Shown here: positions 5,135 through 30,620 of the stretch, piece after piece
How the letters are laid out: the number at the start of each line of letters is the position of its first letter
Position numbering within the stretch: position 1 is the first letter of the stretch
Source of the DNA: Gramella sp. MT6
GTDB taxonomy: Bacteria > Bacteroidota > Bacteroidia > Flavobacteriales > Flavobacteriaceae
NCBI RefSeq assembly: GCF_019357415.1
Contig: NZ_CP048410.1
Coordinates: forward strand, 62,001 to 126,000
Direction: 5' to 3'
DNA length: 64,000 nt
Translations under genes and position numbers: made by a program
The notes under the pieces: model-generated
Seen by the model: the letters and a program-made list of their open reading frames with translations, nothing else
What the model was told of the DNA's origin: nothing
The model's database searches: none

Positions 5135-5136
5135 TA

Positions 5137-9030: not shown

Positions 9031-9033
9031 GAG

Positions 9034-14443: not shown

Positions 14444-14457
14444 CTTAGAATTGCAAC

Positions 14458-15372: not shown

Positions 15373-15420
15373 ACTATGAAGAAATTTTATTAAAGATATA
15401 AAAAGCTATTTTGAGAGGGC

Positions 15421-16251
15421 TTAGTAATTCTCTTTTATCTCGTTTGGAACTAACAAATAATCGCAGTGATTCAGATTATCATGAGTTCCAAAATCATTCA
15501 AAACAGCTAATTCCAAGATATTTGTTTTGGTCTTATAAATTCTAAAAATAGAATAACCAATGCTCTCAATTAACTTTTCAAGTTCTAACTGCCTTTGCCA
15601 TCTACTATCCATTTTACCATAATTAGGCAAAACTTCTATAAGAATAGATGGTTTAAAATTCTGGATAATTTCTATTAAGCTTTTGAATGCCTCTAACTCG
15701 CCTCCCTCAACATCGATCTTAATTAAAGAAACCTTTTCAGGCTTTGCATGATCCAAGATCGTTTCCATATTCAGTACGCCAATAGTATTTTTCTTTTCAA
15801 CTCTACGGGTGCGATAATCTTCTATAACTGTGGCACAACTATCAAAATTTCCACTATAAGAATGTAATGTTAATAATCCATTATCTGTTGAAACACCCAC
15901 AGGAATAATTTGCACGTCCTTAAGCTTGTTTAAACGTGTTAATTTATCAAGATATGCAATACAATAACTGTTAGGTTCTATTCCTAAATAAGGAACATTT
16001 TTGTCAACAGATTTTAGCTTTAATAATGTTTGCCCTGTATTTGCTCCAATATCAATAACGGTTCCTTCAATTCTGGGCAAGTAATTTTTAATGAGATCAA
16101 GGAGCCAAAGTTCATTCATCGTTAGGTTAGGGTAACCAATATCATCAAACCTTGGTAATAGAAATTGTGTGCCATTAATTTCGATTACCTTCGGAGAAAA
16201 GTATCTTTCTAAGACTATTGATTTTAAAAACTTTTTAATTCTATACTTCAA
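15421..16251 (-). CDS. FkbM family methyltransferase
   Basis: A 276-residue SAM-dependent methyltransferase of the FkbM type, common in surface-glycan loci where it O-methylates sugars. Seen: GTVIDIGANTGQTLLKLK (SAM motif I) near residue 65, YLGIEPNSYC (acidic residue of motif II) and LIKIDVEGGELEAFKSL near residue 175, which is the family signature. It is separated by 7 bp from the upstream GT2 and by 48 bp from the downstream GT2, so it is in the operon. The methylated sugar position is unknown. Confidence 0.88.
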   Translation of the reverse strand: MKYRIKKFLKSIVLERYFSPKVIEINGTQFLLPRFDDIGYPNLTMNELWLLDLIKNYLPRIEGTVIDIGANTGQTLLKLKSVDKNVPYLGIEPNSYCIAYLDKLTRLNKLKDVQIIPVGVSTDNGLLTLHSYSGNFDSCATVIEDYRTRRVEKKNTIGVLNMETILDHAKPEKVSLIKIDVEGGELEAFKSLIEIIQNFKPSILIEVLPNYGKMDSRWQRQLELEKLIESIGYSIFRIYKTKTNILELAVLNDFGTHDNLNHCDYLLVPNEIKENY

Positions 16252-16258
16252 TTTACTA

Positions 16259-17164
16259 TCAACTTAAAACATTCAAAATAACCCTTCTTTGAAACTTCAC
16301 CACTTCCAGAATCCTGCCTTCCTTAAAATAAATCGAACTCGTTTTAACCCAGAATGGCAAGGATATTTTTTTATGCTTATAAATTAAAATCTCCCATTTC
16401 TCTAGAATACCCAAACGCTGCTTTGGACTGAATTTATTCAAATGGTTTAGAATAATAAATTCAAAATATTGCAATTTGGCTTTTGCCTTTAACTTTTCCC
16501 CAAACCCTGATCTGGAAAGATTTCTGGAAGACATCCTTATAAGGGCCGTTGCATCATTAATACTATAAATATCACCAAATTCAGAAAACTCAAGCCAGGC
16601 TATATTATCTGCACCCCAACCCATGGGAAAATCTCTAAATCCATATTTTTCATAAACATCCTTTTTAAAAATATATTCACTTAAAGAACTTCTTGTACTG
16701 GCATCTATATATTTTCTAAAGAAGGAATCTGTTGATTTTTCAAGTTTTGGATGCTCATATATTTTAGAATACTCGCCTGTCTCCTCCCACACTATACAAG
16801 ATGCAAATCTTACAAGCTTTATCTCAAATTGTTCTATTTCATTTAATGAGTTGTAAAATTCCTCAACATAATTATCGCTTAGAAAATCGTCATCCCCTAG
16901 AAGCATAATCCATTCTTCGTCCTCAATCAAATCAATACACCTATCCCATTGCTTAGTTAAGGAGCTCCCTCCCAGGTTTTTTAGAAACTTCCTGTAGGTT
17001 ATATTTAAATCAGGTTTAAAAGCTTCGATCAAAGATTCTGGATCTTCTTGTGAATCATCATTACCAATGTAAACTCTAAATTTTTTGCAGGTTTGCCTTG
17101 AAAGAGAATTTAAAGTTTCTTCGAAATAAGCAATCTTAAAATATGGAATAACTACCGCCAGCAT
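16259..17164 (-). CDS. Glycosyltransferase family 2
   Basis: A 301-residue GT2 beginning MLAVVIPYFK, with RVYIGNDDSQED near residue 35 and MLLGDDDFLSD near residue 90 (the metal-binding acidic run). It is divergent from the WEC-signature GT2s of this locus, because the strand before the first acidic motif is different. It is spaced 1 bp from the upstream gene at 17166 and is AT-rich like its neighbours. The sugar is unknown. Confidence 0.82.
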   Translation of the reverse strand: MLAVVIPYFKIAYFEETLNSLSRQTCKKFRVYIGNDDSQEDPESLIEAFKPDLNITYRKFLKNLGGSSLTKQWDRCIDLIEDEEWIMLLGDDDFLSDNYVEEFYNSLNEIEQFEIKLVRFASCIVWEETGEYSKIYEHPKLEKSTDSFFRKYIDASTRSSLSEYIFKKDVYEKYGFRDFPMGWGADNIAWLEFSEFGDIYSINDATALIRMSSRNLSRSGFGEKLKAKAKLQYFEFIILNHLNKFSPKQRLGILEKWEILIYKHKKISLPFWVKTSSIYFKEGRILEVVKFQRRVILNVLS

Positions 17165-17165
17165 C

Positions 17166-18014
17166 TTAATTTGTGAAAAGAGTTTTTAAGATACGTAAAT
17201 GGATTGAAGAAAAAGGTTGAAGTTTAAATAGCTCCTTCCAGGTTCTTACTGCCAATTTCTTAAGACCAGAACGATATAGATCCAAAATAAATTTTTCTCC
17301 ATTTTTAAATTCAAGTTCCGAAATCTCTTTTGAAGAGAGGTTAGCTTTATTAACAGGTAAATTATTGCTATAAAGTTTATGAATTTCATCGGTGGATAGA
17401 AACCAATTTTCATTAATGGAGCCCGAAGAAAAATGTTCAATAAGAATGTTTTTAGTGACCATAATTTTATTCCCATTTATAATTTGCTCCAGTGAAATAT
17501 TAAGATCATAATTATGGAAACCATTCATTTTTTCATTAAATCGAAAAGTGCTATTCTTTCTCATTGCCATAAACACTCCATCTATAACCGCGACTTCCTC
17601 CTCGGTTGTATGTTCGTGAAACCCAGTAAATCTCAATCTTTTTTTGTCGTTCTTGTGCTGAATAATATGGATCGTTTTAAATTCTTCGGGGCAATCCCAC
17701 CATGCCGATGGCATCTTTGTTTTAATTTTAGCTCCCGCTATTCCCAGCAATCCCAGATCTGCATATCTACTAAAACAGTTCTCTAAATAGAGCCCCCACT
17801 CGCTAGTATGAAAAATTATATCGTCATGGAGAAAACTAATAATCCAACCCTTACTTCTTTCAATTCCAATATTATATGCCTCAAAAATTGAATGAAAATT
17901 CTCCGAATTATCAATTACAATTAGTTCATATTGGCAGCCAATACTTTTATCTATATTTCTTTTAAAATTTGAATCTAAATCTCCTGTTCTGGAACATATA
18001 ACTAGAGAGATCAT
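17166..18014 (-). CDS. Glycosyltransferase, GT2-like (StrF/Glyco_tranf_2_5 type)
   Basis: A 282-residue protein with MISLVICSRTGDLD at the N-terminus, YELIVIDNSENFHSI near residue 30, NIGIERSKG and ISFLHDDIIFHT, the HDD taking the place of the DxD motif. This matches the GT2-like StrF group found in many bacterial polysaccharide loci. It is 4 bp after the GT4 gene and 1 bp before the GT2 gene in transcription order. Function beyond a glycosyltransferase fold is inferred. Confidence 0.72.
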   Translation of the reverse strand: MISLVICSRTGDLDSNFKRNIDKSIGCQYELIVIDNSENFHSIFEAYNIGIERSKGWIISFLHDDIIFHTSEWGLYLENCFSRYADLGLLGIAGAKIKTKMPSAWWDCPEEFKTIHIIQHKNDKKRLRFTGFHEHTTEEEVAVIDGVFMAMRKNSTFRFNEKMNGFHNYDLNISLEQIINGNKIMVTKNILIEHFSSGSINENWFLSTDEIHKLYSNNLPVNKANLSSKEISELEFKNGEKFILDLYRSGLKKLAVRTWKELFKLQPFSSIHLRILKTLFTN

Positions 18015-18018
18015 AGTC

Positions 18019-19149
18019 TTAATTTAATATGTTTTCCAAAAATATGGAGTACTTCTCGCCCATGACTTCTGGTATTAATTGAGCAAAGTTTTGCTTGGCA
18101 GTATTACCATCCCGCAATAATTCCTCGGTATTCTCAATGTAAAATAATATTGCTTCAGCCATACTTTTAACATCAAGATATGGAACGACTTTACCTCCAC
18201 CGTCCTTAAGTTTTTCTGCTGTTCCAGTCGCCTTATCAAAGCAAATTATTGGTTTACCTCTCTGAGCAGCTTCAATGGCCACTAAAGGGAATGGATCTTC
18301 TCTGGATGTTAATAAAAATATATCCAGCGAATTTAGAAATAAATTAAGATCGCTCTTTTCCCCAATAAAAAAAACCGTCTCTTCCAAACCGGCCTTTTTT
18401 ATATCAGAATTAGCTATTAACTCCTCCTGTCTGCTCATAGCTCCTGCCCATCGGAATATAATTTTCAAATTAGGATATCGATTTTTAATAAATGCCGCTA
18501 TTTGAATGAATAAATCACTCCCTTTACGCCAATGAACAGTTCCACAGCCGCCTATTAAAATATAATCTTTCTCTCTAACATAATTTGATGGCACTGCTAG
18601 TTTTACAAATTCATTCAGAACAGTAACATCATCAGCTTTGATCTTATAGTTTTTTGTTAACTGATTACGTGCAATATTTGAAGGAGTTATAAATGCGGTT
18701 ATATCACTTATATAATCTGCAAAATTTGGCAATAGAAGGTTAATCACAGTTTCCATTTCATGAATATGAGCTATAACCCTGGCACTATTGAGGTAATTCA
18801 AATTACATGCAACAGGGATACTAACCACCGTATTGGCATATATGATATCAAAACCTTCTTTGGCTAGTGCACCGAAAACTTTATTCTTCCTCTTGATCGA
18901 TTTATTAATAACTGGCAGCTTTCGCGAATAGCTTTTGCTCATTTTTCCTGGATGCTCATAGAATTCATGAGCAACAGATCTAAATTCTTCAGATAAGGGA
19001 CCAGTATTAAGAGATAAAACGAAAATTTGCCATCTATCGCGATTAGCTCTTATCCATTTAAGATACTCTAATAGAACAATGGGAGCCCCTGTCCTACTGG
19101 CTTCATGAGTTATGAATAGAAGTTTTAGCAATTGCTGATTTTTTTCCAA
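18019..19149 (-). CDS. Glycosyltransferase family 4 (GT-B)
   Basis: A 376-residue GT-B enzyme. The N-terminus KLLFITHEASRTGAPIVLLE is typical of GT4 proteins in capsule loci. The C-terminal half has LIGGCGTVHWRKGSDLFIQ near residue 200, IFLLTSREDPFPLVAIEAA near 290 with the family Glu residues, and GGGKVVPYLD. It sits 1 bp from the upstream GT2. The donor sugar is not predictable. Confidence 0.87.
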   Translation of the reverse strand: MEKNQQLLKLLFITHEASRTGAPIVLLEYLKWIRANRDRWQIFVLSLNTGPLSEEFRSVAHEFYEHPGKMSKSYSRKLPVINKSIKRKNKVFGALAKEGFDIIYANTVVSIPVACNLNYLNSARVIAHIHEMETVINLLLPNFADYISDITAFITPSNIARNQLTKNYKIKADDVTVLNEFVKLAVPSNYVREKDYILIGGCGTVHWRKGSDLFIQIAAFIKNRYPNLKIIFRWAGAMSRQEELIANSDIKKAGLEETVFFIGEKSDLNLFLNSLDIFLLTSREDPFPLVAIEAAQRGKPIICFDKATGTAEKLKDGGGKVVPYLDVKSMAEAILFYIENTEELLRDGNTAKQNFAQLIPEVMGEKYSIFLENILN

Positions 19150-19150
19150 T

Positions 19151-20002
19151 TTAATTAAATAAACGTCTTTTGATCCTTGTTAGGAAACTACCCGAACTTT
19201 GATTCTGCAAACTAGCGATCTTTCGTTCCAATCGTCTAATTTCTCTAAAATTCTTCTGTTGTTCGAGGAATGCAAAATACATGTAATCTTCTGTCTTCGG
19301 GACTATTTTCTTTATATAAAAAAATGCCTTCTTCAGGTTTTCATCCATCAACTCTTGGTTTACAGTAAGACTTCCAGGCTGTCTCCTGTAAAAAGCCATG
19401 GGTTCATCTATGAATATAAATTCAGGGTCATCTTTAAATATGGAGACCCACATCACCCAGTCTTCTACTGCTTTTAAATCTTCAGGAAAGCGAAAAGCTT
19501 TAAATAGCTCAGCTTTAAACAATCCACAGTGAATCGGGATACTATTGGTTGCCCATTTTACCAGAATATTATTAAAGCAAAGAAGTTCTTCACTTATTAC
19601 AGAATAAGGAGGATAAGTGACCTGAAGATCATTAGTAAAGGTTCTGAAATTTGAAACAACAATAGAAGTATTGAGGTTCTCCTCAATTGCTTTTATTGAG
19701 TTCTCAAATTTTCTAAGGTCTATAGCGTCATCGGCATCTAGAAATTGAATAAAATTACCGGTTACGAGTTGAAGACCTTTATTTCTGGCGCCACTTAGGC
19801 CTTTATTTTCCTGAAACTCGTATTTAAAACGATCATCTTTCTTCACCCAGCGCCCGGCAATAGCTGCTGTATCATCATCACTGCCATCATTTATAATGAT
19901 ACATTCCCAATTCTCATAGGTCTGCCTCAAAACAGATTCCAGAGCTTCATCAAGAAAATTTGCCTGATTATAACAGGGAACGATTACGGAAATTTTAATC
20001 AT
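19151..20002 (-). CDS. Glycosyltransferase family 2
   Basis: A 283-residue GT2 with ISVIVPCYNQANFLDEALES, NWECIIINDGSDDDT near residue 33 and QFLDADDAIDLRK near residue 90, followed by SIPIHCGLF and EDWVMWV, which place the acceptor-site Asp. It shares the WEC signature with four other GT2s of the locus. The C-terminus (FREIRRLERKIASLQNQ) looks like a short coiled coil. Adjacent genes abut within 1-2 bp. Confidence 0.85.
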   Translation of the reverse strand: MIKISVIVPCYNQANFLDEALESVLRQTYENWECIIINDGSDDDTAAIAGRWVKKDDRFKYEFQENKGLSGARNKGLQLVTGNFIQFLDADDAIDLRKFENSIKAIEENLNTSIVVSNFRTFTNDLQVTYPPYSVISEELLCFNNILVKWATNSIPIHCGLFKAELFKAFRFPEDLKAVEDWVMWVSIFKDDPEFIFIDEPMAFYRRQPGSLTVNQELMDENLKKAFFYIKKIVPKTEDYMYFAFLEQQKNFREIRRLERKIASLQNQSSGSFLTRIKRRLFN

Positions 20003-20941
20003 CTATGAAAGTCTGAGTTTTAGTATCTCCTTTCCCAAAATCCCTTTTTGAGACGCCAGGTACTTATAATAATCACTGCATAATTTAAGATATTCCGGCA
20101 AACTGAGAATTTTATTTCTATAAAACACTTTGAACAACTCAAGATTCTTTCTCCTTTTTATAAATCTGAAAGAGATATCCAGATAGTCATTGAGATATTC
20201 CTTGATAAAAGGTATTTTCTCTTCCTGGTGATATTCATACAGGAATTTTGGTATATCTGCCGCGAAGTGCAGCAATGCCTCATTATATTTTAAGGCAAAG
20301 TCTTTTCTATCCCTTAGGTCTTCTACAATCCTGTATAGTGTATCCGGTTTATGCTTATTAAATACCTTAAATCTATTTCCTGCAATAAGCATGGCCCGTA
20401 TGTGGATCTCAGGATCATTTAACCGCGGATAGGCAGCATCAAACCCCCCAATAGATCTTACAAAATCGGTACGCCAGAACGTACACATCGTTTGCCAGTG
20501 AATTCTATACTGCAGAAATTCTGAAATATAATTTTTTGCTTCTGGGATCTCTAAAACCTTTCTTTCTCCTTTATGCTGTGTAAACATAGGAAAGACCAGA
20601 AACTTATCGGTCTTGTTCTCCACGGCAAGCTTTATTCTATCCTTTAAGCAGTGTGATAAGAGCATGTCATCTGAATCCAGGAAAATACAGAATTCACCCC
20701 TGGCATCCTTTAAGCCAATATTCCTGCAATGTGACGCGCCCTTAGGCAGGGTTTCCCTTTTCAGAAATCTTATCCTGGCATCTTTTACATAAAAACCCAT
20801 TAGTTCTTCAGTATGATCTGTAGAACCGTCGTCCACTACCAAACACTCCCATTCCTGATAAGTCTGTTTAAGTACAGAATCTATCGCCTGGCCTAACAGA
20901 TGAACGCGATTAAATGTGGGAATAATTATGGAGACCAACAT
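20003..20941 (-). CDS. Glycosyltransferase family 2
   Basis: A 312-residue GT2 with VSIIIPTFNRVHLLGQ, EWECLVVDDGSTDHT near residue 32, SHCRNIGL and CIFLDSDDMLLSHC near residue 88. It is another member of the WEC-signature group. It starts 46 bp after the GT4 gene upstream and ends directly against the next GT2. The C-terminal 100 residues are charged and helical-looking without a recognised domain. Confidence 0.85.
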   Translation of the reverse strand: MLVSIIIPTFNRVHLLGQAIDSVLKQTYQEWECLVVDDGSTDHTEELMGFYVKDARIRFLKRETLPKGASHCRNIGLKDARGEFCIFLDSDDMLLSHCLKDRIKLAVENKTDKFLVFPMFTQHKGERKVLEIPEAKNYISEFLQYRIHWQTMCTFWRTDFVRSIGGFDAAYPRLNDPEIHIRAMLIAGNRFKVFNKHKPDTLYRIVEDLRDRKDFALKYNEALLHFAADIPKFLYEYHQEEKIPFIKEYLNDYLDISFRFIKRRKNLELFKVFYRNKILSLPEYLKLCSDYYKYLASQKGILGKEILKLRLS

Positions 20942-20987
20942 GAGAATTTGGCTTATTTATAGGATTTTTTTAAAATAGGTAAAAAAA

Positions 20988-22232
20988 TTAGTTTAAAAGT
21001 TGAAAGTAAACTTTTTCTAGCCGATCCCCCAGAACTCTAGAATCAAAATTTTTCTTTACATAGGCTCTTCCTTCTTTACCCATTTCTCGTCTAAGAATAT
21101 TATCATTTTGAAGAATTTCAAGCTTATTTGCAAATTCGTTCAAATCATTTTCTTTTATCACGAAACCGGTTTTTCCATCCACAACCCCATATTTCATTCC
21201 TCCTGCATCTGAAATAAGAACTGGCAATTCCATAGATTGAGCCTCCTGAATAACTAATCCCTGTGTTTCAGCACGACCCTCTCTATCATATACTCCAGGT
21301 AAAATAAATACGTCTGCGTCATTCATTAATTGCACAACTTTTTCTTGAGATACAGCCCCTATACATTCAACAAATGACTCTAAATTGTTTTTAATGATAT
21401 ATTCATTAATTTCTTCTTCTAATTCACCATCCCCGGCTAATATCAATTTGAAATCATTAATCCCTTTAGCTATAAGTAATGGTATAATTTGTAGCGCTAA
21501 AAGGGGAGCTTTTAATTCTATTAATCGCCCAACAAATAAAATTTGAAAAAGGTTCCTGCTTCTCTCAGCTTCCTTTTTAAATTTTTTAGTATTAAGGCCA
21601 ACCGGTAAAATCTGTATCTCTTTTTTATTAAAAAGTTGTTCTAATAAAGATTTTGAATAGGAAGAATTCACCGTCATTAAATCTACTTCTCGAAATAATT
21701 TAGCATACCTTTCTTTTAATATATGTAGCTTAGAAGGATTTAAATCATATCCGTGAAACGTAGTTACAAATTTCGCTTTAGAGAAAAAACCTGCCCTTTT
21801 AAGATCGGCCACGAACATCCCCGATTCACCAAAATGAGCGTGAATTATATCAAAGTTTTGATCCTTTAAAATCCAGAAGTTCTCGTTAAAAAATTGAAGA
21901 TCAAAATTTTTAGTTTGATAACTAAAAAACCTAAATTTCTGTATAAATTTTTTCGGGTTGAAATATCTTATATTAGACCTCGTGGTTCTTAATAATAAAG
22001 AAAAAGCCTCCCAGTTCGTAGATCTTTTAATTTCCTTAAAAGTAGTCAAAGCTTCCAGGTTATAGTCCTTTATATTCTGATGTCGAATTGCTTCGCAATT
22101 ATGATCAAGGGCATATATTTTTACTTCATGTCCTCTTTCAATTAAATCTGCGATTTGGTTATAAATAAAAGTTTGACTAATAACCGGAAAATGACTAACT
22201 ATAAATGCAATTTTTAACTTTTCTTTACTCAC
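20988..22232 (-). CDS. Glycosyltransferase family 4, colanic-acid WcaL-like
   Basis: A 414-residue GT-B glycosyltransferase. The N-terminus (KIAFIVSHFPVISQTFIYNQ) matches enzymes of the WcaL/AmsK type. The middle has IHAHFGESGMF, and the C-terminal half has ILFVGRLIELKAPLLAL, DADVFILPGVYDREGRAETQ and GLVIQEAQSMELPVLISDAG, the usual donor-binding signature. The family transfers hexoses from NDP sugars in exopolysaccharide assembly. It is 13 bp downstream of a sulfotransferase gene. Confidence 0.87.
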   Translation of the reverse strand: MSKEKLKIAFIVSHFPVISQTFIYNQIADLIERGHEVKIYALDHNCEAIRHQNIKDYNLEALTTFKEIKRSTNWEAFSLLLRTTRSNIRYFNPKKFIQKFRFFSYQTKNFDLQFFNENFWILKDQNFDIIHAHFGESGMFVADLKRAGFFSKAKFVTTFHGYDLNPSKLHILKERYAKLFREVDLMTVNSSYSKSLLEQLFNKKEIQILPVGLNTKKFKKEAERSRNLFQILFVGRLIELKAPLLALQIIPLLIAKGINDFKLILAGDGELEEEINEYIIKNNLESFVECIGAVSQEKVVQLMNDADVFILPGVYDREGRAETQGLVIQEAQSMELPVLISDAGGMKYGVVDGKTGFVIKENDLNEFANKLEILQNDNILRREMGKEGRAYVKKNFDSRVLGDRLEKVYFQLLN

Positions 22233-22245
22233 TTTTTCCTTAATC

Positions 22246-23133
22246 TTATTTAATAGGACGGTAACCTAATATTTCTCTCATTTCTTTCGTAAGAAAATCT
22301 ATACGATCCTGAGTTTTAGAATCTAAATCATTAATAGAATTTATCTTACTTATTTGTTTACTCTTATTGATTTTAGTTCTCATTATTGTAGATAAAGAAT
22401 TAGGCTCCAAAATTTTTATCCCAAAAAATGAGGATAATCTAGTAATAGCTTCATTCTGAACATTTTTATCCTTATTAAAAATATCTTCAAAATTAAGATG
22501 GATATAATCCTTATTCTTTAAGCCATAATAAAGATGTCGGTTTGACATGTTCCAATACCAAGCAATTTTCTCTATTCTATTTAAATTTTTCCACTCCCAT
22601 GGTAATTTTTCACCTAAATCCTTTGCTGTAATTCTTTTTCGTCTGTCTGAAATACCATAAAAATCATTTTTGCCATCTCCTTGGGGGTCCTTATTATATG
22701 CAGATACACAGAAAGTCTTGAAATCTCGAGTAATGAATAAATACTTAGTAGATCTAAAATTTGAGCTAAATTCTTCTAAAACTGGATAAATAAAAGGATT
22801 TGATTCTACATATAATGGCTTTTTGAAAAATGCATACTTAACCAAATCTTTGTTAGAGTAGAAGTTTCCAATTAATTTACTTCTATAGGAAAAGATGGCT
22901 CTCTTAATTCCCTCATCAGAAACTTCAGCTAATATTTTTTGAAATGAAAGATCAAATAAGTCTGGTTTGGGCTCATGATAAACTGGATATTTCTCAAAAA
23001 CATTTTTAAAAAAAAATTCAAAAAACTTTGTCCCGGTTCTACCTGAGCTAACTATTAAAATTAAGTTTGTTCTCCGGACAACTCTGGTAACTAAAAAATT
23101 GCGAAAACTCTGTTTAATTTTTTTTCTAATCAT
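22246..23133 (-). CDS. Sulfotransferase-like P-loop protein (copy 1)
   Basis: A 295-residue protein with a PAPS-binding P-loop like that of sulfotransferases (LIVSSGRTGTKFFEFFF, residues about 27-43) and a 3'-phosphate motif resembling FITRDFKTFCVSAY near residue 155. PAPS-dependent enzymes of this family sulfate hydroxyls or amines of glycans. The gene is very AT-rich. It is the most divergent of the four sulfotransferase-like proteins here, and the acceptor is unknown. It lies 52 bp downstream of wzt in the minus-strand operon. Confidence 0.68.
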   Translation of the reverse strand: MIRKKIKQSFRNFLVTRVVRRTNLILIVSSGRTGTKFFEFFFKNVFEKYPVYHEPKPDLFDLSFQKILAEVSDEGIKRAIFSYRSKLIGNFYSNKDLVKYAFFKKPLYVESNPFIYPVLEEFSSNFRSTKYLFITRDFKTFCVSAYNKDPQGDGKNDFYGISDRRKRITAKDLGEKLPWEWKNLNRIEKIAWYWNMSNRHLYYGLKNKDYIHLNFEDIFNKDKNVQNEAITRLSSFFGIKILEPNSLSTIMRTKINKSKQISKINSINDLDSKTQDRIDFLTKEMREILGYRPIK

Positions 23134-23185
23134 TATTAACTATAAACAACTCTTCCAAATTAAATTCCTTCATTTTTGTTGTCTC

Positions 23186-24406
23186 TCATTTTAATAGTTT
23201 ATCAGATTCATAGAATGCTGATTTTAATAGAAATGGTGGCCATACTTCAATATCATCAAGTATTTGAAAAGAAAGTACATCATTAATTCTGAGTAATGGA
23301 TTACTTCCATTATTAAGAGTTACTTGAAGATTAATAACATAAACTCCTTTTGATAATTGAAGATTTGAGTGCTTTAAAATAAAAGCAATTTTTGAACCGC
23401 TCCATGAAATTCTGGAGTTTTTGTCATTTGCCCTAAATACGGCAATAGGCCTTTGTTCTTTATCAAAGATAGAAATTCGAAACTCTGGAATATTTTTTAA
23501 TGACACAGCTTCAAAAATAAATTCTATTTCAAAATCGTCATGCCATTTAAGTTGATCAATGCCTTCATGACTAATAACATTACCTATTAAAGTAGCATCT
23601 TGAAGATTAATTGATCCATCACTAAAAACCACATTTCTTTCGTTATCAGAAAATTTACTATAATAACTATCAATACCTTTTGCAACTTCTCCCCCTGAAT
23701 AAACAGGCTCTCCTTTTTCTAACAAAATAATCCTATCACATAGCCTTGAAACCTGAGGCATATTATGAGAGACAAATATTATAGCAGTATTTGGTAGAAT
23801 TTTATCTATGGTTTTAAAACATTTTAGAGCAAAACCTAGATCCCCCACCGCCAGTACCTCATCGATCAGCAACACATCGGGCTCCATCTGGGCGGCTACG
23901 GCAAATCCCAGCCTTACCCGCATACCGCTACTGTAATGCTGTACCGGCATATCTATAAACTCACGTATTTCAGCAAAATCTATGATCTCCTCCAGCTTCT
24001 CATTCACCTCCTTCCTGGTAAAGCCCAGAACCGCTCCATTATTATAAATATTTTCTCTTCCGGTAAGTATGGGATTAAAGCCTGCACCAAGTTCAATAAG
24101 CGCCCCTACCCGTCCCTTGATGATCACTCTACCTTCATCTGGCGTTATTAGCCCGTTAAGGATCTTTAAAAGGGTAGATTTTCCCGCACCGTTATGCCCT
24201 ATCAGTCCAAGGCACTCGCCTCTTCTCAACTCAAAATTAATATCCTTTAATGCCCAGAACTCCTTGGGTCTTAACCTGCGCTCTTCCTTATTCCCGGTTA
24301 GGTTAGAAAAAAGGTCTTTTACCCCGTACCATAAACTGGTCTTCAGGTCCTTGCAGAACTTCTTGGAAAGCCCTTCAACTTTTAATAAAACTTCTTTTTC
24401 TTCCAT
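23186..24406 (-). CDS. wzt: ABC transporter ATPase with C-terminal Wzt domain
   Basis: A 406-residue ATPase that powers export of a lipid-linked polysaccharide through Wzm. Seen: Walker A GHNGAGKST, signature YSSGMRVRLGFA, Walker B VLLIDEV and D-loop AVGDLGF, then a C-terminal domain of about 160 residues (after PVYSGGEVAKG) of the Wzt_C type, which reads the glycan end. The ATG at 24406 is preferred: it is 2 bp past the wzm stop, and the longer start at 24487 would overlap wzm by 79 bp. Base composition changes sharply at about 23.83 kb: GC-rich in the ATPase front, AT-rich after it. Confidence 0.92.
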   Translation of the reverse strand: MEEKEVLLKVEGLSKKFCKDLKTSLWYGVKDLFSNLTGNKEERRLRPKEFWALKDINFELRRGECLGLIGHNGAGKSTLLKILNGLITPDEGRVIIKGRVGALIELGAGFNPILTGRENIYNNGAVLGFTRKEVNEKLEEIIDFAEIREFIDMPVQHYSSGMRVRLGFAVAAQMEPDVLLIDEVLAVGDLGFALKCFKTIDKILPNTAIIFVSHNMPQVSRLCDRIILLEKGEPVYSGGEVAKGIDSYYSKFSDNERNVVFSDGSINLQDATLIGNVISHEGIDQLKWHDDFEIEFIFEAVSLKNIPEFRISIFDKEQRPIAVFRANDKNSRISWSGSKIAFILKHSNLQLSKGVYVINLQVTLNNGSNPLLRINDVLSFQILDDIEVWPPFLLKSAFYESDKLLK

Positions 24407-24408
24407 AA

Positions 24409-25248
24409 CTAGGCACTTGATCTTTCTACTATTACCGGGATGGAGATCCTGTACAATATTAATGAAACAAAGAAAACAGGAATACACACCAGGATTATAG
24501 TCATAAAATAAGGTAAGAATTCAGGCTCAGCGCCAGTAATAAAATCCCTGGTGGTAAGTATCAATGGCGTTAGAGGATTTATTTCCATGATCGTCTTCAT
24601 GATCCCATCTTCAGGGATCGCATATACCACGGGGGTAACGTACATTAAAAAACTCAGGCCAAAACTGCTTATCTTCCCAATATCCTTATATAACAATCCA
24701 AGAGGCGTTATAAATAGGCCTATCATGGTCCCGAACAATAACATTCCCAGAATACCTAGCGGGAGCAACAACAAACTCCAGTGAAAACCTAAGCCGAAAA
24801 GGAATACAAATCCCACTAGTAAAAGGATCTTCACCATAGAATTAAAAAGTAATTTATAGATCCCGGCAACAATAAGTGCTTCTTTAGGAAAATTGATCTT
24901 GCTTAACAGTCCGCGGGAAGAATTTGTACTTACGGTGGGTGAGTTGATGGCTTCTACAAGAATAGACCATAATAAGGTTCCTGAAAATGCATAGACCGGA
25001 TAAGGGATACCGGTATCTGTAAGTTTCACCGTGCCAGACAGGTTGAGGAAGACCCACACCGCAGCCGTAGCCAGCGGCGTAATAAAGGCCCAGATAATAC
25101 CTAAGTAAGACTGGCGATACTGAGCTTTTATATCTCTTTCAGCCAGTTGCCTTGATAAAAATCGCGACTTGTAAACATCAGATAAACTTTCCCTGAGGAT
25201 CTTCAGGAAGCTGCTCGTATTCTCTTTTTGATAAACTCTGGTTTCCAT
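24409..25248 (-). CDS. wzm: ABC-2 type polysaccharide exporter permease
   Basis: A 279-residue membrane protein with about six hydrophobic segments and the ABC-2 polysaccharide-export signature (RDIKAQYRQSYLGIIWAF near residues 38-55, then DIGKISSFGLSFLMYVTP). It forms the inner-membrane channel with Wzt for a completed, lipid-linked polymer. It starts 110 bp from the divergent sulfotransferase at 25359, so an operon promoter is expected there. Only a weak TATATTTC (25264-25271, minus strand) was seen. The gene is locally GC-rich. Confidence 0.93.
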   Translation of the reverse strand: METRVYQKENTSSFLKILRESLSDVYKSRFLSRQLAERDIKAQYRQSYLGIIWAFITPLATAAVWVFLNLSGTVKLTDTGIPYPVYAFSGTLLWSILVEAINSPTVSTNSSRGLLSKINFPKEALIVAGIYKLLFNSMVKILLLVGFVFLFGLGFHWSLLLLPLGILGMLLFGTMIGLFITPLGLLYKDIGKISSFGLSFLMYVTPVVYAIPEDGIMKTIMEINPLTPLILTTRDFITGAEPEFLPYFMTIILVCIPVFFVSLILYRISIPVIVERSSA

Positions 25249-25358
25249 GGGCTATTGATGTTCGAAATATACAGTTTTAATCATACTCTCCCTGAATCAC
25301 CCTACGTATTTTTAAGAAAAACATTAAAACTCTCTACAGATACTTTATGGGAAATTGA

Positions 25359-26195
25359 ATGCAAGACTTATATTTATTGTCAAGTAGCACCAGCATGAAA
25401 ATAGAGAATGCAATTATAATTCTGGGGCCCGGTAAAAGCGGTACCACCCTATTCAACAATATATTATCATTGCACAGGGATCTGTACTGGATATCCTCCT
25501 ATTTAAATAAATTCCCTGAAAAGCATTATCTGGCACTACTAAATAACCTGAACCATGTAAAGTGGATTGAAAAACAGATCAGAAATAAGAATAATTTTCC
25601 CAAACCTTCTGAATCATTCCAGTTCTGGACACATTATATTCCGCGTTTTCCATCAAACCTCAAAGAATATGATGCTGCCGAGATCGGCAATGCTATAGAA
25701 GCAGCAAGAAATATTGGTAAATACCAGAAAGGAAACAGGCTGGTTATCAAGTTTACCGGTCCTTCACGGATAGAATTCATCGAAGAGATTTTTGAGAAAC
25801 CTACGATCATCTGGATAGATAGGGATCCCCGAGCCATCGTAGCATCGTTTTTCTCCAGCAAATGGCGTTATAAAAACAGGATGGAAGTATTCAGGAACAA
25901 ACCCAGGAAAGAGATCATTGAGGAATATGCTAATTACTATGAGTGGATTAGCAAAGAGAAAGAAAGCCTTAAGCAATTTCCTTTTTTGCATGTACACTAT
26001 GAATCACTAATTGAGGATCCATTAGATTTCTTCGAGAGGATATGCTCTTTTTCGAATTTGGAATTCTACACTGATTTTAAGGAGCTGATCGAAAGCTGGA
26101 ATATAAAAAAACAGACCAACGATAAATTCTTAAGATTGTTCTCTACCGAAGAAATATCTCATATGAATTCGATTTTCGATAAGGCTAAGTCGTAA
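25359..26195 (+). CDS. Sulfotransferase family protein (copy 2)
   Basis: A 278-residue PAPS-dependent sulfotransferase-like protein. Seen: the 5'-phosphosulfate loop IILGPGKSGTTLFN (residues about 19-32) and the 3'-phosphate motif IWIDRDPRAIVASFF near residue 145. It is on the plus strand, divergent from wzm and convergent with the sulfotransferase at 26220-27086. An ATG at 25395 is an equally plausible start, since it removes a 12-residue lead before the first beta-strand. The acceptor is probably the glycan made by this locus, by inference. Confidence 0.8.
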   Translation: MQDLYLLSSSTSMKIENAIIILGPGKSGTTLFNNILSLHRDLYWISSYLNKFPEKHYLALLNNLNHVKWIEKQIRNKNNFPKPSESFQFWTHYIPRFPSNLKEYDAAEIGNAIEAARNIGKYQKGNRLVIKFTGPSRIEFIEEIFEKPTIIWIDRDPRAIVASFFSSKWRYKNRMEVFRNKPRKEIIEEYANYYEWISKEKESLKQFPFLHVHYESLIEDPLDFFERICSFSNLEFYTDFKELIESWNIKKQTNDKFLRLFSTEEISHMNSIFDKAKS

Positions 26196-26219
26196 AATAT
26201 TTCTTTAAGATATTATAAG

Positions 26220-27086
26220 CTACTTAAGCCATTGAGATAAGTCTTTATCTAATATTTGCTCTAGTTCTTCAATTTCCTTTCTGTAGTAACCAATTAGATG
26301 CTCCCTGTCTTTTTTGGAAATATGTTCCGGAACTTTATTGATTTTTCTAATAACATCCCCCACCCTTTTATCTAATAAATTTAATTTATTTGCAAAATAA
26401 TTAAGCCTGTAGTACTTGAATAATTCGCCGCTTTGGGTATAGATCGTATTCGTCTGAAAATCGAACGAGGAATTTTCTCCGAAAAATTCTAATATCTCCT
26501 TACAGGTTCTTTCAGGGTCCGTTCGAAAATCTTCAAAAAACAGCACTAATAAATTCTTCCTGTTGAAATAAGAAAGATATTCTTTTAAGTGACTGGCATA
26601 ATTACCTTTACCCAGATAATCAAAATAGGGCACCCCATTGTTTTTTTTTCTTCCTGCTATGGCATCAATGGCTTTTCTAAAGCTTCTAATGTTCTCATAT
26701 CCCATTTTAACGTTGTGCTTCCAGTCTGAATATGCTCTTTCCACTGGGTTTCTCAGGATGAGTATCAGCTTCATGTTTGAATTAAAATCTGAGATCTTTT
26801 TTGCCGTATTATCTGAATGGAAGTAGTCTACCGAAGCTTCACCTATATGTATTGATGTTTTGTTTTTGAATAGAGCTAAATACTCATTTCTATCCTGAAT
26901 GGTAGTAGCTTTGATCTGGTTCACCACCCGTGAATTACCTCGAAAATTCAGGTCTTTATCATTCCAGCAAAAAAATTTGGGCTCTTTCCTATCTGAAAAT
27001 TCTATATCGGGATGCTGAGACAGGTATTTATATAAGGATGTGGTACCGCATTTGGGAGATCCAATAATGAGAAAATTTGGTTTCAT
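26220..27086 (-). CDS. Sulfotransferase domain protein (copy 3)
   Basis: A 288-residue sulfotransferase, the most canonical of the four. The PAPS loop FLIIGSPKCGTTSLYKYL is at residues 5-22 and LILRNPVERAYSDWKHN is near residue 110, both as in heparan-type sulfotransferases. DRKEPKFFCW near residue 32 is typical too. A nine-T run (26641-26649 on the plus strand) lies in the coding sequence. It is 15 bp after the methyltransferase gene upstream, so it should be in the minus-strand operon. Confidence 0.88.
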   Translation of the reverse strand: MKPNFLIIGSPKCGTTSLYKYLSQHPDIEFSDRKEPKFFCWNDKDLNFRGNSRVVNQIKATTIQDRNEYLALFKNKTSIHIGEASVDYFHSDNTAKKISDFNSNMKLILILRNPVERAYSDWKHNVKMGYENIRSFRKAIDAIAGRKKNNGVPYFDYLGKGNYASHLKEYLSYFNRKNLLVLFFEDFRTDPERTCKEILEFFGENSSFDFQTNTIYTQSGELFKYYRLNYFANKLNLLDKRVGDVIRKINKVPEHISKKDREHLIGYYRKEIEELEQILDKDLSQWLK

Positions 27087-27101
27087 TTTTCGAAGTTAAT
27101 C

Positions 27102-27947
27102 CTACTTAATTGGATTCTTATAAATAAGAACCTGACTTCTTGCAAAAGACCTGTTTAAAAATTGTGGTAAAGAACCTTCATTCTTTAAAGCCCAGCGCTT
27201 ATATGAATTTCTACTTTCGCCCCACTTCATGATTCTACTGAAACGCTCCAATGTACCTACAGGAATTACTTTCACCTCCTTAAAGAACTCTTCACCCAGC
27301 CGTTCAAAATGAGAAGATCTAAAAGTCCTTTCTGGGTGCGGATCATTTAATTTCCACTTTAAAAATTCAGACCTGTTAAATTTAGATGGCCGTCCTTTAA
27401 CGGGAATATACCATCTAACTTTATCCAGAATTAAATTATTTACTGCGGGTTCAAAAAACCTTGCTTCACCATCCTGTTTCAAAATTCTTACGGTTTCAGA
27501 AATAAATTTTTGCTCCAGGTCCAGGTCTAAATGATGTAGAAATGCTTTTCCCACAACAAAATCGAAATACTCTGATTCAATTTCATTTTTCAGAAAATCA
27601 CCTCGAATAAATTTTATAGGATATTTGAAGTTATAACTTTCATTAAGCTTTTCAATGATTTCACCGCTTGCATCTGCTATATCGTTTGCATAAACATTTG
27701 CCCCTAAAGCCGCCATTATTGCAGCATTAACACAGTTTCCACATCCAAGTTCCATGATCCTTTTTCCTGCTATTCGATCTCTGAAATTCTCTTTGTATAA
27801 TCCAGACCAGCTGGTCTCAGTTGAAATAGCTGAATCCAGAAACTCATCCAGATTATTGATCCAATATAGAATATTCTTTATTCCATAATTAGAATAAATT
27901 TTTTCGTAATGCTGCTTATTCCTATTGATCTCTTGTTCAGCCATCAT
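27102..27947 (-). CDS. Class I SAM-dependent methyltransferase
   Basis: A 281-residue methyltransferase with MELGCGNCVNAAIMAALGA (motif I), a Methyltransf_11-like fold (YFDFVVGKAFLHHLD) and EARFFEPAVNN. It transfers methyl from SAM to an unknown acceptor, probably a sugar or lipid in the glycan pathway. I chose the ATG at 27947, four bases past the pyruvyl-transferase stop. A start at 27971 would overlap it. Confidence 0.78.
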   Translation of the reverse strand: MMAEQEINRNKQHYEKIYSNYGIKNILYWINNLDEFLDSAISTETSWSGLYKENFRDRIAGKRIMELGCGNCVNAAIMAALGANVYANDIADASGEIIEKLNESYNFKYPIKFIRGDFLKNEIESEYFDFVVGKAFLHHLDLDLEQKFISETVRILKQDGEARFFEPAVNNLILDKVRWYIPVKGRPSKFNRSEFLKWKLNDPHPERTFRSSHFERLGEEFFKEVKVIPVGTLERFSRIMKWGESRNSYKRWALKNEGSLPQFLNRSFARSQVLIYKNPIK

Positions 27948-27951
27948 TATC

Positions 27952-28788
27952 CTATTTTTCAATTTTAACAAAAGGACAGGTATCTAAAAGGTCTTCCTGA
28001 ATTTTTTTGATAATATTTCTTGAAGGTAAGTTGATTCTATCTGTAAATTTCCGCTCGATATCTTCATTGCTTTTAATTTCTTTCCATAGAAAACTTTCTC
28101 CATATGCAATATTTACTGATTCGAAATAATCTCTGAACTTTATATCGTTCCCAAATAGTTTATTCGAAAATTTCACCCAAATTGCAGGTATTTCATACGC
28201 ATGAGCAACAATTAAACCATGTAAGGAAGAAGAAATAATCTTCTCACATTCCAAAATCTGTCTCGTGACATTCTCTACGTCTAATGTCATCAAATCTATA
28301 ATTTTGATATCTTTATTATCCGGATATTGCTCAGAAACAGCTTTAAAATCATGATAATGTGGTACTATACCTACCCTATGTTTTTTCTCGACTTTTGGTT
28401 TAAAATATAAAGGCAATAATATTGCAGGATCACCAAATACTTCAGGACAATGATAACCTAAATCATTTAGGTATTGCCGCGTTTGGGGACCTCTAACGGC
28501 TCTAAAATTTGCTTTAGCTACTTTTTGATCATGGTCTATAATTCCACTCCCCCATACAAAGCTACTTTTAGTAGCATGATGAATAATACTACCCGCAGCC
28601 AAAACATTTGATTTATCTAACCTATACCATGGAATTTTCTTCGGTTGAACCCATTCAACTTTTTTACCAGAAATTTTTTCAACCAAATATTTGGAAAGTA
28701 GATCTCCATAATTTTCGTGACTCTTACCCATTAAACGAGGCTCACTCCACCAAAAGAGATTAACTACTTCTTCAAATTGTTTTTCCAT
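27952..28788 (-). CDS. Polysaccharide pyruvyl transferase family protein
   Basis: A 278-residue member of the PS_pyruv_trans family, which adds ketal-linked pyruvate from phosphoenolpyruvate onto a sugar. Seen: NYGDLLSKYLVEKISG near residue 27, AAGSIIHHA, FRAVRGPQTRQYL, VFGDPAILLPLY and SSLHGLIVAHAYEIP, which carries the conserved SxHG. It is a short, ExoV-like version of the family. Its product would add negative charge to the polymer, fitting the sulfotransferases nearby. It is the first gene of the minus-strand run below the 28.8-29.0 kb divergent region. Confidence 0.85.
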   Translation of the reverse strand: MEKQFEEVVNLFWWSEPRLMGKSHENYGDLLSKYLVEKISGKKVEWVQPKKIPWYRLDKSNVLAAGSIIHHATKSSFVWGSGIIDHDQKVAKANFRAVRGPQTRQYLNDLGYHCPEVFGDPAILLPLYFKPKVEKKHRVGIVPHYHDFKAVSEQYPDNKDIKIIDLMTLDVENVTRQILECEKIISSSLHGLIVAHAYEIPAIWVKFSNKLFGNDIKFRDYFESVNIAYGESFLWKEIKSNEDIERKFTDRINLPSRNIIKKIQEDLLDTCPFVKIEK

Positions 28789-28865
28789 AATAATATTTAT
28801 ATAAATTTAGGAAAATGAATAGCTGAAACAATTTCCTAAAACTGGTCTAAAATGCGGAAAAAATA

Positions 28866-28894
28866 TTTCCTGTTAGGGTAAAAAGATATATTTG
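28866..28894 (+). promoter_or_regulatory. Candidate Bacteroidetes-type promoter for the methyltransferase at 28970
   Basis: TATATTTG (28887-28894) is a perfect match to the TAnnTTTG -7 element. A TTTC (28866-28869) is 17 bases upstream in place of TTTG. It lies 75 bp before the gene start, within the divergent gap between the pyruvyl transferase and the methyltransferase. Confidence 0.4.
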
Positions 28895-28969
28895 TTAAAA
28901 AATCATGACCTTCACTATTAAAACTAACTCCGGTATAATCCTACTTTTAAAATAACTCAGAACATCGTA

Positions 28970-29713
28970 ATGAAAAAAATTTTAAAAAAGTTCCTTAAAT
29001 TAAATAATGCATCTCCACAAATAATAGATAGCAGGTTTGACTCTCGGTATTTAAATCCAAATGTACCCCTGTCAACTACTGTTAGCCATATGAATTGGCC
29101 TGATTATATTTTTGAGCTTGGAAATCATTCCGATAAAAGAATACTAGAAATAGGAAGTCGTGAGGTTACGGGTATATCCAATGCTCGTAAAAGATTATCC
29201 AAGGCTAAATACATAGGTTTTGATTATTATCCGGGGGCTAATGTAGACGTAGTTGGTGACGCTCATAAACTTTCATCATACTTTGAAAATGAGGACAAAT
29301 TTGACATCATATTTTCCAGCGCATGTTTTGAACATTTTGCAATGCCCTGGAAAGTTACTTCTGAAATAGCAAAAGTTTTGAAAGTAGGAGGATATATAAT
29401 GGTTGAAACCCATTTCGCGTATTCAGCACATGAGAGGCCGTGGCATTTTTTTCATTTTACAGATATAGGATTAAAAACCCTATTCTCTCCTGCATTGGGA
29501 TTTGAATGTATTGAAGCTGGTATGTCAAACCCCTTGGTAGCAAGGTTCTCTTCACTTGCAGATAAATACCTAAGACTTAAGCCTGTTAGAGGGCTATACT
29601 GTCATTCTGAGTTTTTTGGAAAAAAAGTTATGGATGTTGAAGATTTCAGCTGGGATAAAGTTGAAATAAATGAACTTATTGGTGATACCCAATATCCAAT
29701 TGATCAGAAATAG
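28970..29713 (+). CDS. Class I SAM-dependent methyltransferase
   Basis: A 247-residue methyltransferase. Motif I is RILEIGSREVTG, less Gly-rich than usual; FDYYPGANVDVVGDAHKL holds the motif II acid, and IIFSSACFEHFAMPW is a typical Methyltransf_11 motif. It is on the plus strand, opposite to most of the locus. The next gene (sulfotransferase copy 4) follows on the same strand. DNA here is AT-rich, like the imported-looking glycosyltransferase block. The acceptor is unknown. Confidence 0.72.
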   Translation: MKKILKKFLKLNNASPQIIDSRFDSRYLNPNVPLSTTVSHMNWPDYIFELGNHSDKRILEIGSREVTGISNARKRLSKAKYIGFDYYPGANVDVVGDAHKLSSYFENEDKFDIIFSSACFEHFAMPWKVTSEIAKVLKVGGYIMVETHFAYSAHERPWHFFHFTDIGLKTLFSPALGFECIEAGMSNPLVARFSSLADKYLRLKPVRGLYCHSEFFGKKVMDVEDFSWDKVEINELIGDTQYPIDQK

Positions 29714-29813
29714 TTAAGTTATTATGGTTTTATCAATGATAATAAATTTGAAAGAAATTCGAATCAAAATATTTTTCAGGCAAATGAATCTCTTTAAAAG
29801 AATTTGAAATTAT

Positions 29814-30620
29814 ATGAAATCAGAAAACCAAAAAATAATTTTTCTCAATTCCTACCTTCCAAGAACTGGACACAATTTTGCTTCAGAGGTTATTAGAATA
29901 TTTTCTGATCATGAGGTCTTAGCCCATTCAAGAAGTGAAACCCGTCTCTCATCAATTTTGCATTCATACTATTCTATATATGATCGGAAAATTTTTCATC
30001 AAAGCGATAAAGATTTTTTCGATGAATTGTTTATTGATAATCTTAGAGAAAGAATCTTAAATAAATCGGATAAACAATACATCATGATAAAAGATACGAA
30101 TCTAATTGGCGTCGATTCTCTTATACGGGTGTTCCCTAATGATATTCATTTAATTCTAGTACGAGATCCTAAAAGCGTCTTTCTTTCCCTAATTAAAGGT
30201 ATGCGCTTAGAGAAACGAACAAAAAAAAACAATCTAAAGAGATTGGGAATTAAAACTGGACTATACCCCTATTATTACAGTAAAAAATTAAGTAAACAAG
30301 TTCTGCAGTTTTTACCCGACACCTCACCCCTAACAATAATTAGATATGAGAATCTGGTAAAAAAAGAAGAGAAAACAATTTCAATTCTAAAAGAAAAATT
30401 TGGAACATTAAAAAGTATTGAAAAGATTAAAGAGGAAATTGACAATATCGAGGTTATTAATTCCTCATTCTTTAACGAAGTAGGTGCAAAAGGTATTTGG
30501 GACATGAGACCTAGAACTTCAAACTATAATCCATTGCATAGAAAAGGACATTCGAATTTAGTAAGGATGTCAATTGCGTTAGGCAGCAAAAATCTTCGAA
30601 GAAGATTAGGTTATATATAA
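29814..30620 (+). CDS. Sulfotransferase-like P-loop protein (copy 4)
   Basis: A 268-residue protein with a degenerate sulfotransferase P-loop (IIFLNSYLPRTGHNFASEV, residues about 8-26) and LILVRDPKSVFLSLIKG near residue 115, a good 3'-phosphate-binding motif. Both support a PAPS-binding fold, though the missing GTT makes it less certain than copies 2 and 3. A run of nine As (30221-30229) is inside the gene. It converges on wzc, leaving only 15 bp between the two stop codons. Confidence 0.62.
   Translation: MKSENQKIIFLNSYLPRTGHNFASEVIRIFSDHEVLAHSRSETRLSSILHSYYSIYDRKIFHQSDKDFFDELFIDNLRERILNKSDKQYIMIKDTNLIGVDSLIRVFPNDIHLILVRDPKSVFLSLIKGMRLEKRTKKNNLKRLGIKTGLYPYYYSKKLSKQVLQFLPDTSPLTIIRYENLVKKEEKTISILKEKFGTLKSIEKIKEEIDNIEVINSSFFNEVGAKGIWDMRPRTSNYNPLHRKGHSNLVRMSIALGSKNLRRRLGYI

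What the first reader, a model, noticed from the sequence alone, without database searches (positions are those of the whole stretch)
22246..30620. Four sulfotransferase-like genes inside one polysaccharide export locus
Four PAPS-type P-loop proteins (22246, 25359, 26220, 29814) lie within 8.4 kb of a Wzm/Wzt exporter and a Wza/Wzc pair, together with a pyruvyl transferase and methyltransferases. The four differ in P-loop wording, so they look like separate acquisitions rather than recent copies. Family knowledge links such P-loops to PAPS-dependent sulfation. The inference is a sulfated, strongly anionic cell-surface polymer, which is unusual for a bacterium.
Basis: partly seen in the sequence, partly recalled or inferred. 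Interest (0 to 1): 0.8.

Follow-up and report, generated by a model that had tools for sequence, protein, structure and literature searches.

The report
Probable sulfated surface polysaccharide gene locus
A bacterium of the genus Christiangramia (Gramella) carries four mutually distant sulfate-adding enzymes inside the gene cluster for a surface sugar coat, and among 24 genomes of its genus such enzymes were found only in those that can also make the activated sulfate donor, so the coat is very probably sulfated.

Summary
All four genes (ST1 22246, ST2 25359, ST3 26220, ST4 29814) are intact sulfotransferase-superfamily proteins: ST2 and ST3 by Pfam, ST3 also against solved heparan-sulfate N-sulfotransferases, ST4 by a confident fold model (best match: tyrosylprotein sulfotransferase), ST1 by profile-profile comparison. 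They are 24-26% identical to one another. They lie in one wza-wzc-wzm-wzt polysaccharide locus with nonulosonic-acid genes; wzc was found in 21 of 24 genomes of the genus.

First, the genome has a cysQ-cysC-cysD-cysN operon that makes the sulfate donor PAPS and removes its by-product. It lies 1.4 Mb away, in a second polysaccharide cluster with two more sulfotransferases. Second, sulfotransferases and APS kinase (CysC) co-occur exactly in the genus: 10 of 10 CysC+ genomes, 0 of 14 CysC- genomes. Near wzc the figures are 7 of 9 against 0 of 12. Kinship-aware contrasts agree but are too few to be significant.

The best reading is a surface glycan sulfated by four enzymes fed by PAPS made in trans. 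Sulfate was not measured. Sulfated capsules are known from marine Gammaproteobacteria, and sulfated exopolysaccharide from cyanobacteria, so this is a new variant of a known kind.

The parts
22246..23133 (-). ST1, sulfotransferase-like protein, 295 aa; loop SSGRTGTKF (R32), 3'-phosphate motif R136-S144
   Evidence: no Pfam sulfotransferase hit; HMM built here 3.7e-16, ST1 not in its seed; hhalign of its small family (3 sequences) against the ST2-like family prob 97.5 E 5.8e-12, ST3-like 84.1, ST4 family 88.7, control APS kinase 0.4; its relative L053:8399-9235 hits PF13469 at 1.5e-12
23186..24487 (-). Wzt-type ABC exporter ATPase; the listed GTG start is probably too early
   Evidence: PF00005 3.7e-24; teichoic-acid/galactan export ATPase models 6e-54 to 2e-49, below their cut-offs
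24409..25248 (-). Wzm-type ABC exporter permease
   Evidence: NF050109 1.1e-13, below its cut-off; no Pfam hit above cut-off
25359..26195 (+). ST2, sulfotransferase, 278 aa; loop GPGKSGTTL (K26), R155-S163
   Evidence: PF13469 4.4e-20, PF00685 1.4e-11; 47% identical relative in Christiangramia aestuarii, about 50% in Salinimicrobium catena
26220..27086 (-). ST3, heparan-sulfate-type sulfotransferase, 288 aa; loop GSPKCGTTSL (K12), R112-S120
   Evidence: PF00685 3.2e-23; PDB 3rnl 8.2e-40, 1nst (NDST) 1.4e-15
27102..27971 (-). SAM methyltransferase; a similar gene follows the pyruvyl transferase in 16 of 20 congeners
   Evidence: PF08241 2.9e-13
27952..28788 (-). polysaccharide pyruvyl transferase-like protein
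   Evidence: PF04230 2.4e-16; match in 19 of 24 genus genomes
28970..29713 (+). SAM methyltransferase
   Evidence: PF08241 1.3e-9
29814..30620 (+). ST4, sulfotransferase of a subfamily with a divergent 5' loop (PR[TS]GHNF, R17), R117-S125, 268 aa
30636..33104 (-). Wzc-type chain-length/tyrosine autokinase
   Evidence: TIGR01007 9.1e-47, above cut-off; PF13807, PF13614
33104..33892 (-). Wza-type outer-membrane export protein; edge of the locus
   Evidence: PF02563 3e-15, SLBB
987..7941 (-). nonulosonic-acid block, 7 ORFs: AsnB-like amidotransferase, CMP-sugar synthetase, formyltransferase, deacetylase, NeuC-type epimerase, an unassigned ORF (6294-6935), NeuB-type synthase
   Evidence: NeuC TIGR03568 2.9e-116 above cut-off; NeuB TIGR03569 4.7e-92 and PseF 2.4e-44 below cut-off; PF00551, PF01522; ORFs
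7942..22232 (-). mostly glycosyltransferase-like ORFs, with WecB (11416-12519) and an FkbM methyltransferase (15421-16251)
   Evidence: ORFs; WecB TIGR00236 1.1e-133; FkbM PF05050 1.4e-14; glycosyltransferase labels by reading, not scanned

Best explanation
The locus builds a surface polysaccharide, probably containing a nonulosonic acid, that Wzm/Wzt and Wza/Wzc export, and ST1-ST4 add sulfate to it. Each enzyme is distant from the others and most likely recognises its own acceptor sugar or position. They act in the cytoplasm, using PAPS supplied in trans by the cysQ-cysC-cysD-cysN operon 1.4 Mb away. CysQ removes the by-product PAP. The product would be strongly anionic. Shown: the genes, the fold or motif evidence, the PAPS operon, the co-occurrence. 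Inferred: catalysis, the acceptor, cytoplasmic timing, sulfate on the polymer.
For: Four sulfotransferase-superfamily proteins with both PAPS motifs, the only four among 62 window ORFs. APS kinase, ATP sulfurylase (CysD, CysN) and CysQ above NCBIfam cut-offs, together in one gene row inside a second polysaccharide cluster with two more sulfotransferases. In 24 genus genomes strong APS kinase (E<1e-50) and a sulfotransferase hit (E<=0.001) occur in the same 10 and are both absent from the other 14 (Fisher 5e-7 ignoring kinship). In about 40 kb that includes wzc (20 congeners) plus the window, sulfotransferases are in 7 of 9 CysC+ and 0 of 12 CysC- genomes (p 3e-4 ignoring kinship). The sister genome G005 (SecA 98%) lacks both. 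In the family sample, 7 of 7 ST4-bearing genomes (own included) have CysC against 127 of 299 overall (p 0.002). Published marine sulfated capsules show sulfotransferase plus PAPS genes (PMC11641403, PMC11766843, passages).
Against: No sulfate measurement. The PAPS genes are not in this locus. Two CysC+ congeners have sulfotransferases only elsewhere (G013, G019). PAPS might also feed CysH, which scores best to PAPS-reductase models (below cut-off) and lacks a CC pair. Kinship-aware pairing gives only 3 independent contrasts on supported branches: 3 of 3 agree for any sulfotransferase (p 0.25), on average 1.8 agree and 1.2 do not differ for sulfotransferases near wzc (p 0.5). Outside the genus 3 of 7 sulfotransferase-bearing order genomes show no APS kinase (G026 76%, G028 88%, G030 99% complete). 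ST4 relatives in three congeners lie outside the polysaccharide genes (L123-L125). The ST1 fold is unmodelled. The Pfam searches can miss ST1-like proteins, so absence in the 14 is by Pfam and, near wzc in 12 of them, by the HMM built here.
Confidence: 0.8

Rival explanations
1. Only some of the four are active sulfotransferases (a narrower form of the best reading, so the odds overlap). ST4 (GHN loop) and/or ST1 use the fold for another purpose, such as binding a nucleotide without sulfo transfer, so the glycan bears one or two sulfates.
For: ST4's loop has H-N where T-[TS] is usual, in all 11 aligned sequences; ST1 misses Pfam and its single-sequence model failed.
Against: The loop arginine and the R-x7-S pair are invariant in the ST4 alignment; the fold matches are PAPS enzymes; ST4-bearing genomes of the family sample all have CysC (7 of 7, own included).
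Confidence: 0.2
2. The sulfotransferases act on a small molecule, lipid or protein instead of the polysaccharide, as gut Bacteroides sulfotransferases act on sterols (recalled), and lie in this locus by chance or mobility.
For: The best structural match of ST4 is a tyrosylprotein sulfotransferase; ST4 relatives in three congeners lie beside genes not labelled as glycan genes.
Against: Four in 8.4 kb between or beside wzm/wzt and wzc; this genome and six congeners have such genes near wzc; 7 of 10 named ST4 loci are glycan loci; ST3's best annotated solved relatives are glycan sulfotransferases (its top hit 3rnl has no stated substrate).
Confidence: 0.1
3. The CysC operon is mainly for sulfate assimilation, so its co-occurrence with sulfotransferases is incidental.
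For: In G000, G002, G003, G009, G010 and G013 the only cysD found lies beside cysC, so the operon probably also serves assimilation; CysH resembles PAPS reductases.
Against: Fourteen of 24 congeners lack a strong APS kinase; all 8 of them that one search covered (G001, G004-G008, G011, G012) keep cysH next to cysD, which suggests that they assimilate sulfate without it (not tested); CysQ and two sulfotransferases share the CysC cluster here.
Confidence: 0.1

Closest known systems
Sulfated capsule clusters of Vibrio sp. KMM 8419 and Cobetia marina KMM 1449 (PMC11641403, PMC11766843; passages read)
   Same: ABC-exported surface polysaccharide; sulfotransferase genes in the cluster (three named in Vibrio); cysC/cysN/cysD (and cysQ in Cobetia) as PAPS source; sulfate shown chemically there
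   Different: Here a Flavobacteriaceae genome, Wza/Wzc/Wzm/Wzt-type genes instead of kps genes, nonulosonate genes, four sulfotransferases in 8.4 kb, and PAPS genes 1.4 Mb away in another glycan cluster; no chemistry yet
Synechan xss cluster of Synechocystis PCC 6803 (PMC8205485; passages read)
   Same: several sulfotransferases of distinct subfamilies among glycosyltransferase genes
   Different: Wzx/Wzy system with two sulfotransferases on a plasmid; here an ABC exporter and four
Heparan-sulfate-type sulfotransferases (NDST, 3-OST; PF00685)
   Same: ST3 is homologous over most of the domain (1nst 1.4e-15)
   Different: acceptor unknown; bacterial 3rnl is nearer (8.2e-40)
Tyrosylprotein sulfotransferase (TPST) fold
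   Different: 16% identity; 5' loop PRTGHNF; different genomic setting; not claimed as a TPST

Membership tests
PAPS-dependent sulfotransferase superfamily (ST2, ST3) | Pfam PF00685/PF13469 above cut-off | tested here: met
PAPS-dependent sulfotransferase superfamily (ST1) | Pfam PF00685/PF13469 above cut-off | tested here: not met
   supported only through a relative and by profile comparison, so ST1 is called sulfotransferase-like
PAPS-dependent sulfotransferase superfamily (ST1) | sulfotransferase fold | tested here: inconclusive
   single-sequence model failed, pLDDT 33.8
PAPS-dependent sulfotransferase superfamily (ST4) | Pfam PF13469 above cut-off | tested here: not met
   26 bits against 27; the fold test below is met
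PAPS-dependent sulfotransferase superfamily (ST4) | sulfotransferase fold | tested here: met
   pLDDT 85.5; the 50 rows shown in each are sulfotransferases or retinol dehydratase, which binds PAP in the same fold
PAPS-dependent sulfotransferase superfamily (all four) | basic residue in the 5' loop and R-x7-S 3'-phosphate motif | tested here: met
   the motif definition is partly recalled; ST4's loop lacks the usual T-[TS]
PAPS-dependent sulfotransferase superfamily (all four) | PAPS-dependent sulfo transfer | not testable with these tools
   needs an enzyme assay
sulfated polysaccharide locus (Vibrio/Cobetia kind) | sulfotransferases among glycosyltransferase and exporter genes | tested here: met
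sulfated polysaccharide locus (Vibrio/Cobetia kind) | PAPS synthesis genes in the same cluster | tested here: not met
   the genome's one strong APS kinase is in a second glycan cluster at 2.46 Mb
sulfated polysaccharide locus (Vibrio/Cobetia kind) | ester sulfate in the polymer | not testable with these tools
   needs chemistry
tyrosylprotein sulfotransferase (ST4) | conserved sequence family and protein-tyrosine acceptor | tested here: inconclusive
   structure match only, 16% identity; the A1 profile listed no TPST chain among PDB sequences at E<=1

The most novel reading that the evidence does not exclude
ST4 and its relatives are a sulfotransferase subfamily with an altered phosphosulfate loop (PR[TS]GHNF) that belongs to nonulosonate glycan loci of Flavobacteriaceae and sulfates the nonulosonic (sialic-acid-like) residue or its neighbour, giving a bacterial counterpart of sulfated sialoglycans. 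In Christiangramia, sulfation of a shared type of coat would be switched on and off between species together with a PAPS operon elsewhere on the chromosome.
Probability: 0.2. Interest if true: 0.7.

Novelty: new variant of a known kind. Interest (0 to 1): 0.5.

Why it matters
Flavobacteriaceae are best known as degraders of sulfated marine polysaccharides (recalled). Here a genus in which some species seem to build one offers a natural experiment: sister species with related coat loci, with and without sulfation genes. That would make the role of sulfation (salt, metal binding, phage, grazing) directly testable, and gives new sulfotransferases for glycan chemistry. In five papers read by passage I saw no chemically shown sulfated surface polysaccharide of a Bacteroidota, and none stood out in the listings of eight library searches. 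That is weak evidence, because most subscription papers are not held and none of the searches was exhaustive. One metagenome study reports no sulfotransferase in its Bacteroidetes genomes at its BLAST threshold (PMC9723792, passages).

Tried and rejected
ST1 structure: folded from its single sequence because no homologue from an allowed source was at hand; pLDDT 33.8, not used for any search. Profile searches of the ST1 and ST4 families against PDB sequences gave only weak hits: CurM sulfotransferase 0.029 (ST1) and 0.0086 (ST4); the best ST4 hit by E-value, dopamine beta-hydroxylase at 0.0033 over 42 profile positions, was judged chance. ST2 had only weak PDB sequence hits: 2z6v 0.0021, 4gbm 0.013.

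Considered and rejected: recent duplication (24-26% identity); pseudogenes (all four ORFs complete); P-loop kinases instead of sulfotransferases for ST1 (control against APS kinase prob 0.4).

Rows dropped before counts: G010, G018 and G023 have no wzc match at 1e-100 and are outside the 21-genome count; G010 has no SecA match and is not in the tree. A second SecA copy listed for G017 was left out. Weak PF01583 hits (1.4e-5 to 9.7e-4) were not counted as APS kinase. G010's only sulfotransferase hit is 4.6e-5, below cut-off, counted because it is 45% identical to ST4. The locus survey covers about 40 kb including wzc, on one side only.

Literature: (listings); passages only were read of PMC8205485, PMC7356697, PMC11641403, PMC11766843, PMC9723792.
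Full report
Setting. The window is bases 62001-126000 of a 3.77 Mb single-contig genome. That G006 may be C. forsetii KT0803 rests on its contig length, 3,798,465 bases, and recall.

Not recent copies. Pairwise identity is 24-26%, and BLAST at 1e-3 finds none of the others from any one. Nearest relatives among what was searched differ: ST2 in C. aestuarii (47%) and Salinimicrobium catena (about 50%), ST3 in a genome of another family (34% over its length), ST4 in S. catena (61%), ST1 nothing above about 31%. ST1 and ST4 have low G+C (28%, 31%) against 39% for 34-64 kb and 35% for the locus, which fits acquisition but does not prove it.

PAPS supply. The genome has one strong APS kinase (2.0e-67) in the order cysQ, a duplicated DUF2061 protein, cysC, cysD, cysN, about 1.4 Mb away round the circle. 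This row lies in a second polysaccharide cluster with two further Pfam sulfotransferases (L023:18159-18845 and L024:5566-6597). At least six sulfotransferase-like genes are thus encoded.

Co-occurrence. In 24 genus genomes strong APS kinase is in G000, G002, G003, G009, G010, G013, G014, G016, G019 and G021. Sulfotransferase hits are in the same ten and in none of the other 14. wzc was found in 21 of 24. In about 40 kb including wzc in 20 congeners, plus the window, sulfotransferases are in G000, G002, G003, G009, G014, G016 and G021, which is 7 of 9 CysC+, and in 0 of 12 CysC-. NeuB- and NeuC-like genes occur there in all 20 congeners, in four of them (G008, G014, G019, G021) at only 29-36% identity, so the backbone of the locus is shared, though the sugar may differ, and sulfation genes are a variable part. 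CysC changes state seven times on the best SecA tree, of which well-supported branches force three. Kinship-aware contrasts agree 3 of 3 for any sulfotransferase but cannot reach significance; for sulfotransferases near wzc about 1.8 of 3 agree and none goes the other way. In a family sample, CysC is in 127 of 299 genomes and in all 7 that carry ST4, own included. Against strict coupling, three of seven sulfotransferase-bearing genomes from other families of the order show no APS kinase, one of them 99% complete.

Assimilation. Of the ten genus genomes whose CysH was read, six CysC+ and four CysC-, all CysH end in ECGLHA and lack a CC pair. In 8 of 8 CysC- genus genomes covered, cysD lies next to cysH. 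In G000, G002, G003, G009, G010 (73% complete) and G013 the only cysD found is beside cysC; G014 has both arrangements; G016, G019 and G021 were not covered. So CysC is apparently dispensable for assimilation in the genus, but its operon now probably carries the ATP sulfurylase for both uses.

ST4 family. The loop S-x2-P-R-[TS]-G-H-N-F is invariant apart from the bracket in 11 sequences. Of ten named loci, seven are glycan loci with NeuA-, NeuB- or NeuC-like genes; in four of these ST4 directly follows a protein of about 465 aa. Three, all Christiangramia, sit beside an ABC transporter gene and ORFs of 277, 321 and 731 aa, outside the glycan genes.

Comparison. [quoted passage not shown] passages). 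Synechan has two sulfotransferases; its authors wrote in 2021 that such genes were not known to them in other bacterial exopolysaccharide clusters (PMC8205485; passages). Pontiella makes sulfated glycosaminoglycan-like exopolymers (PMC7356697; passages). The present locus belongs with these in kind. It differs in phylum, exporter set, number of sulfotransferases and PAPS supply in trans.

Verdict. The polymer's sulfate must be measured.

Noticed in passing
L078:5256-5915 (cysH): CysH of the genus (ten read) lacks the CC pair expected (recalled) of iron-sulfur APS reductases and scores to PAPS-reductase models below cut-off, yet 14 of 24 congeners have no strong APS kinase; CysH there may reduce APS without an iron-sulfur cluster.
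   Followed up: partly
L055:7026-8423 and relatives: A protein of about 465 aa (...DGVGLRNFAF...) directly precedes ST4 in 4 of 7 named glycan loci; ORFs of similar length recur near the Neu genes of congeners (homology not tested). Only a sub-threshold Glyco_transf_4 hit.
   Followed up: partly
L023:11503-11964: A tandem DUF2061 membrane protein lies between cysQ and cysC, as in G002 and G021; in G009 it precedes cysC without cysQ beside it. A sulfate-related membrane role is a guess.
   Followed up: no
window 24409-24487: The listed wzt ORF overlaps wzm by 79 bases; the true wzt start is probably a later ATG.
   Followed up: no
L123, L124, L125: ST4 relatives in three Christiangramia genomes share a position beside 277-, 321- and 731-aa ORFs, outside the glycan locus.
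   Followed up: partly
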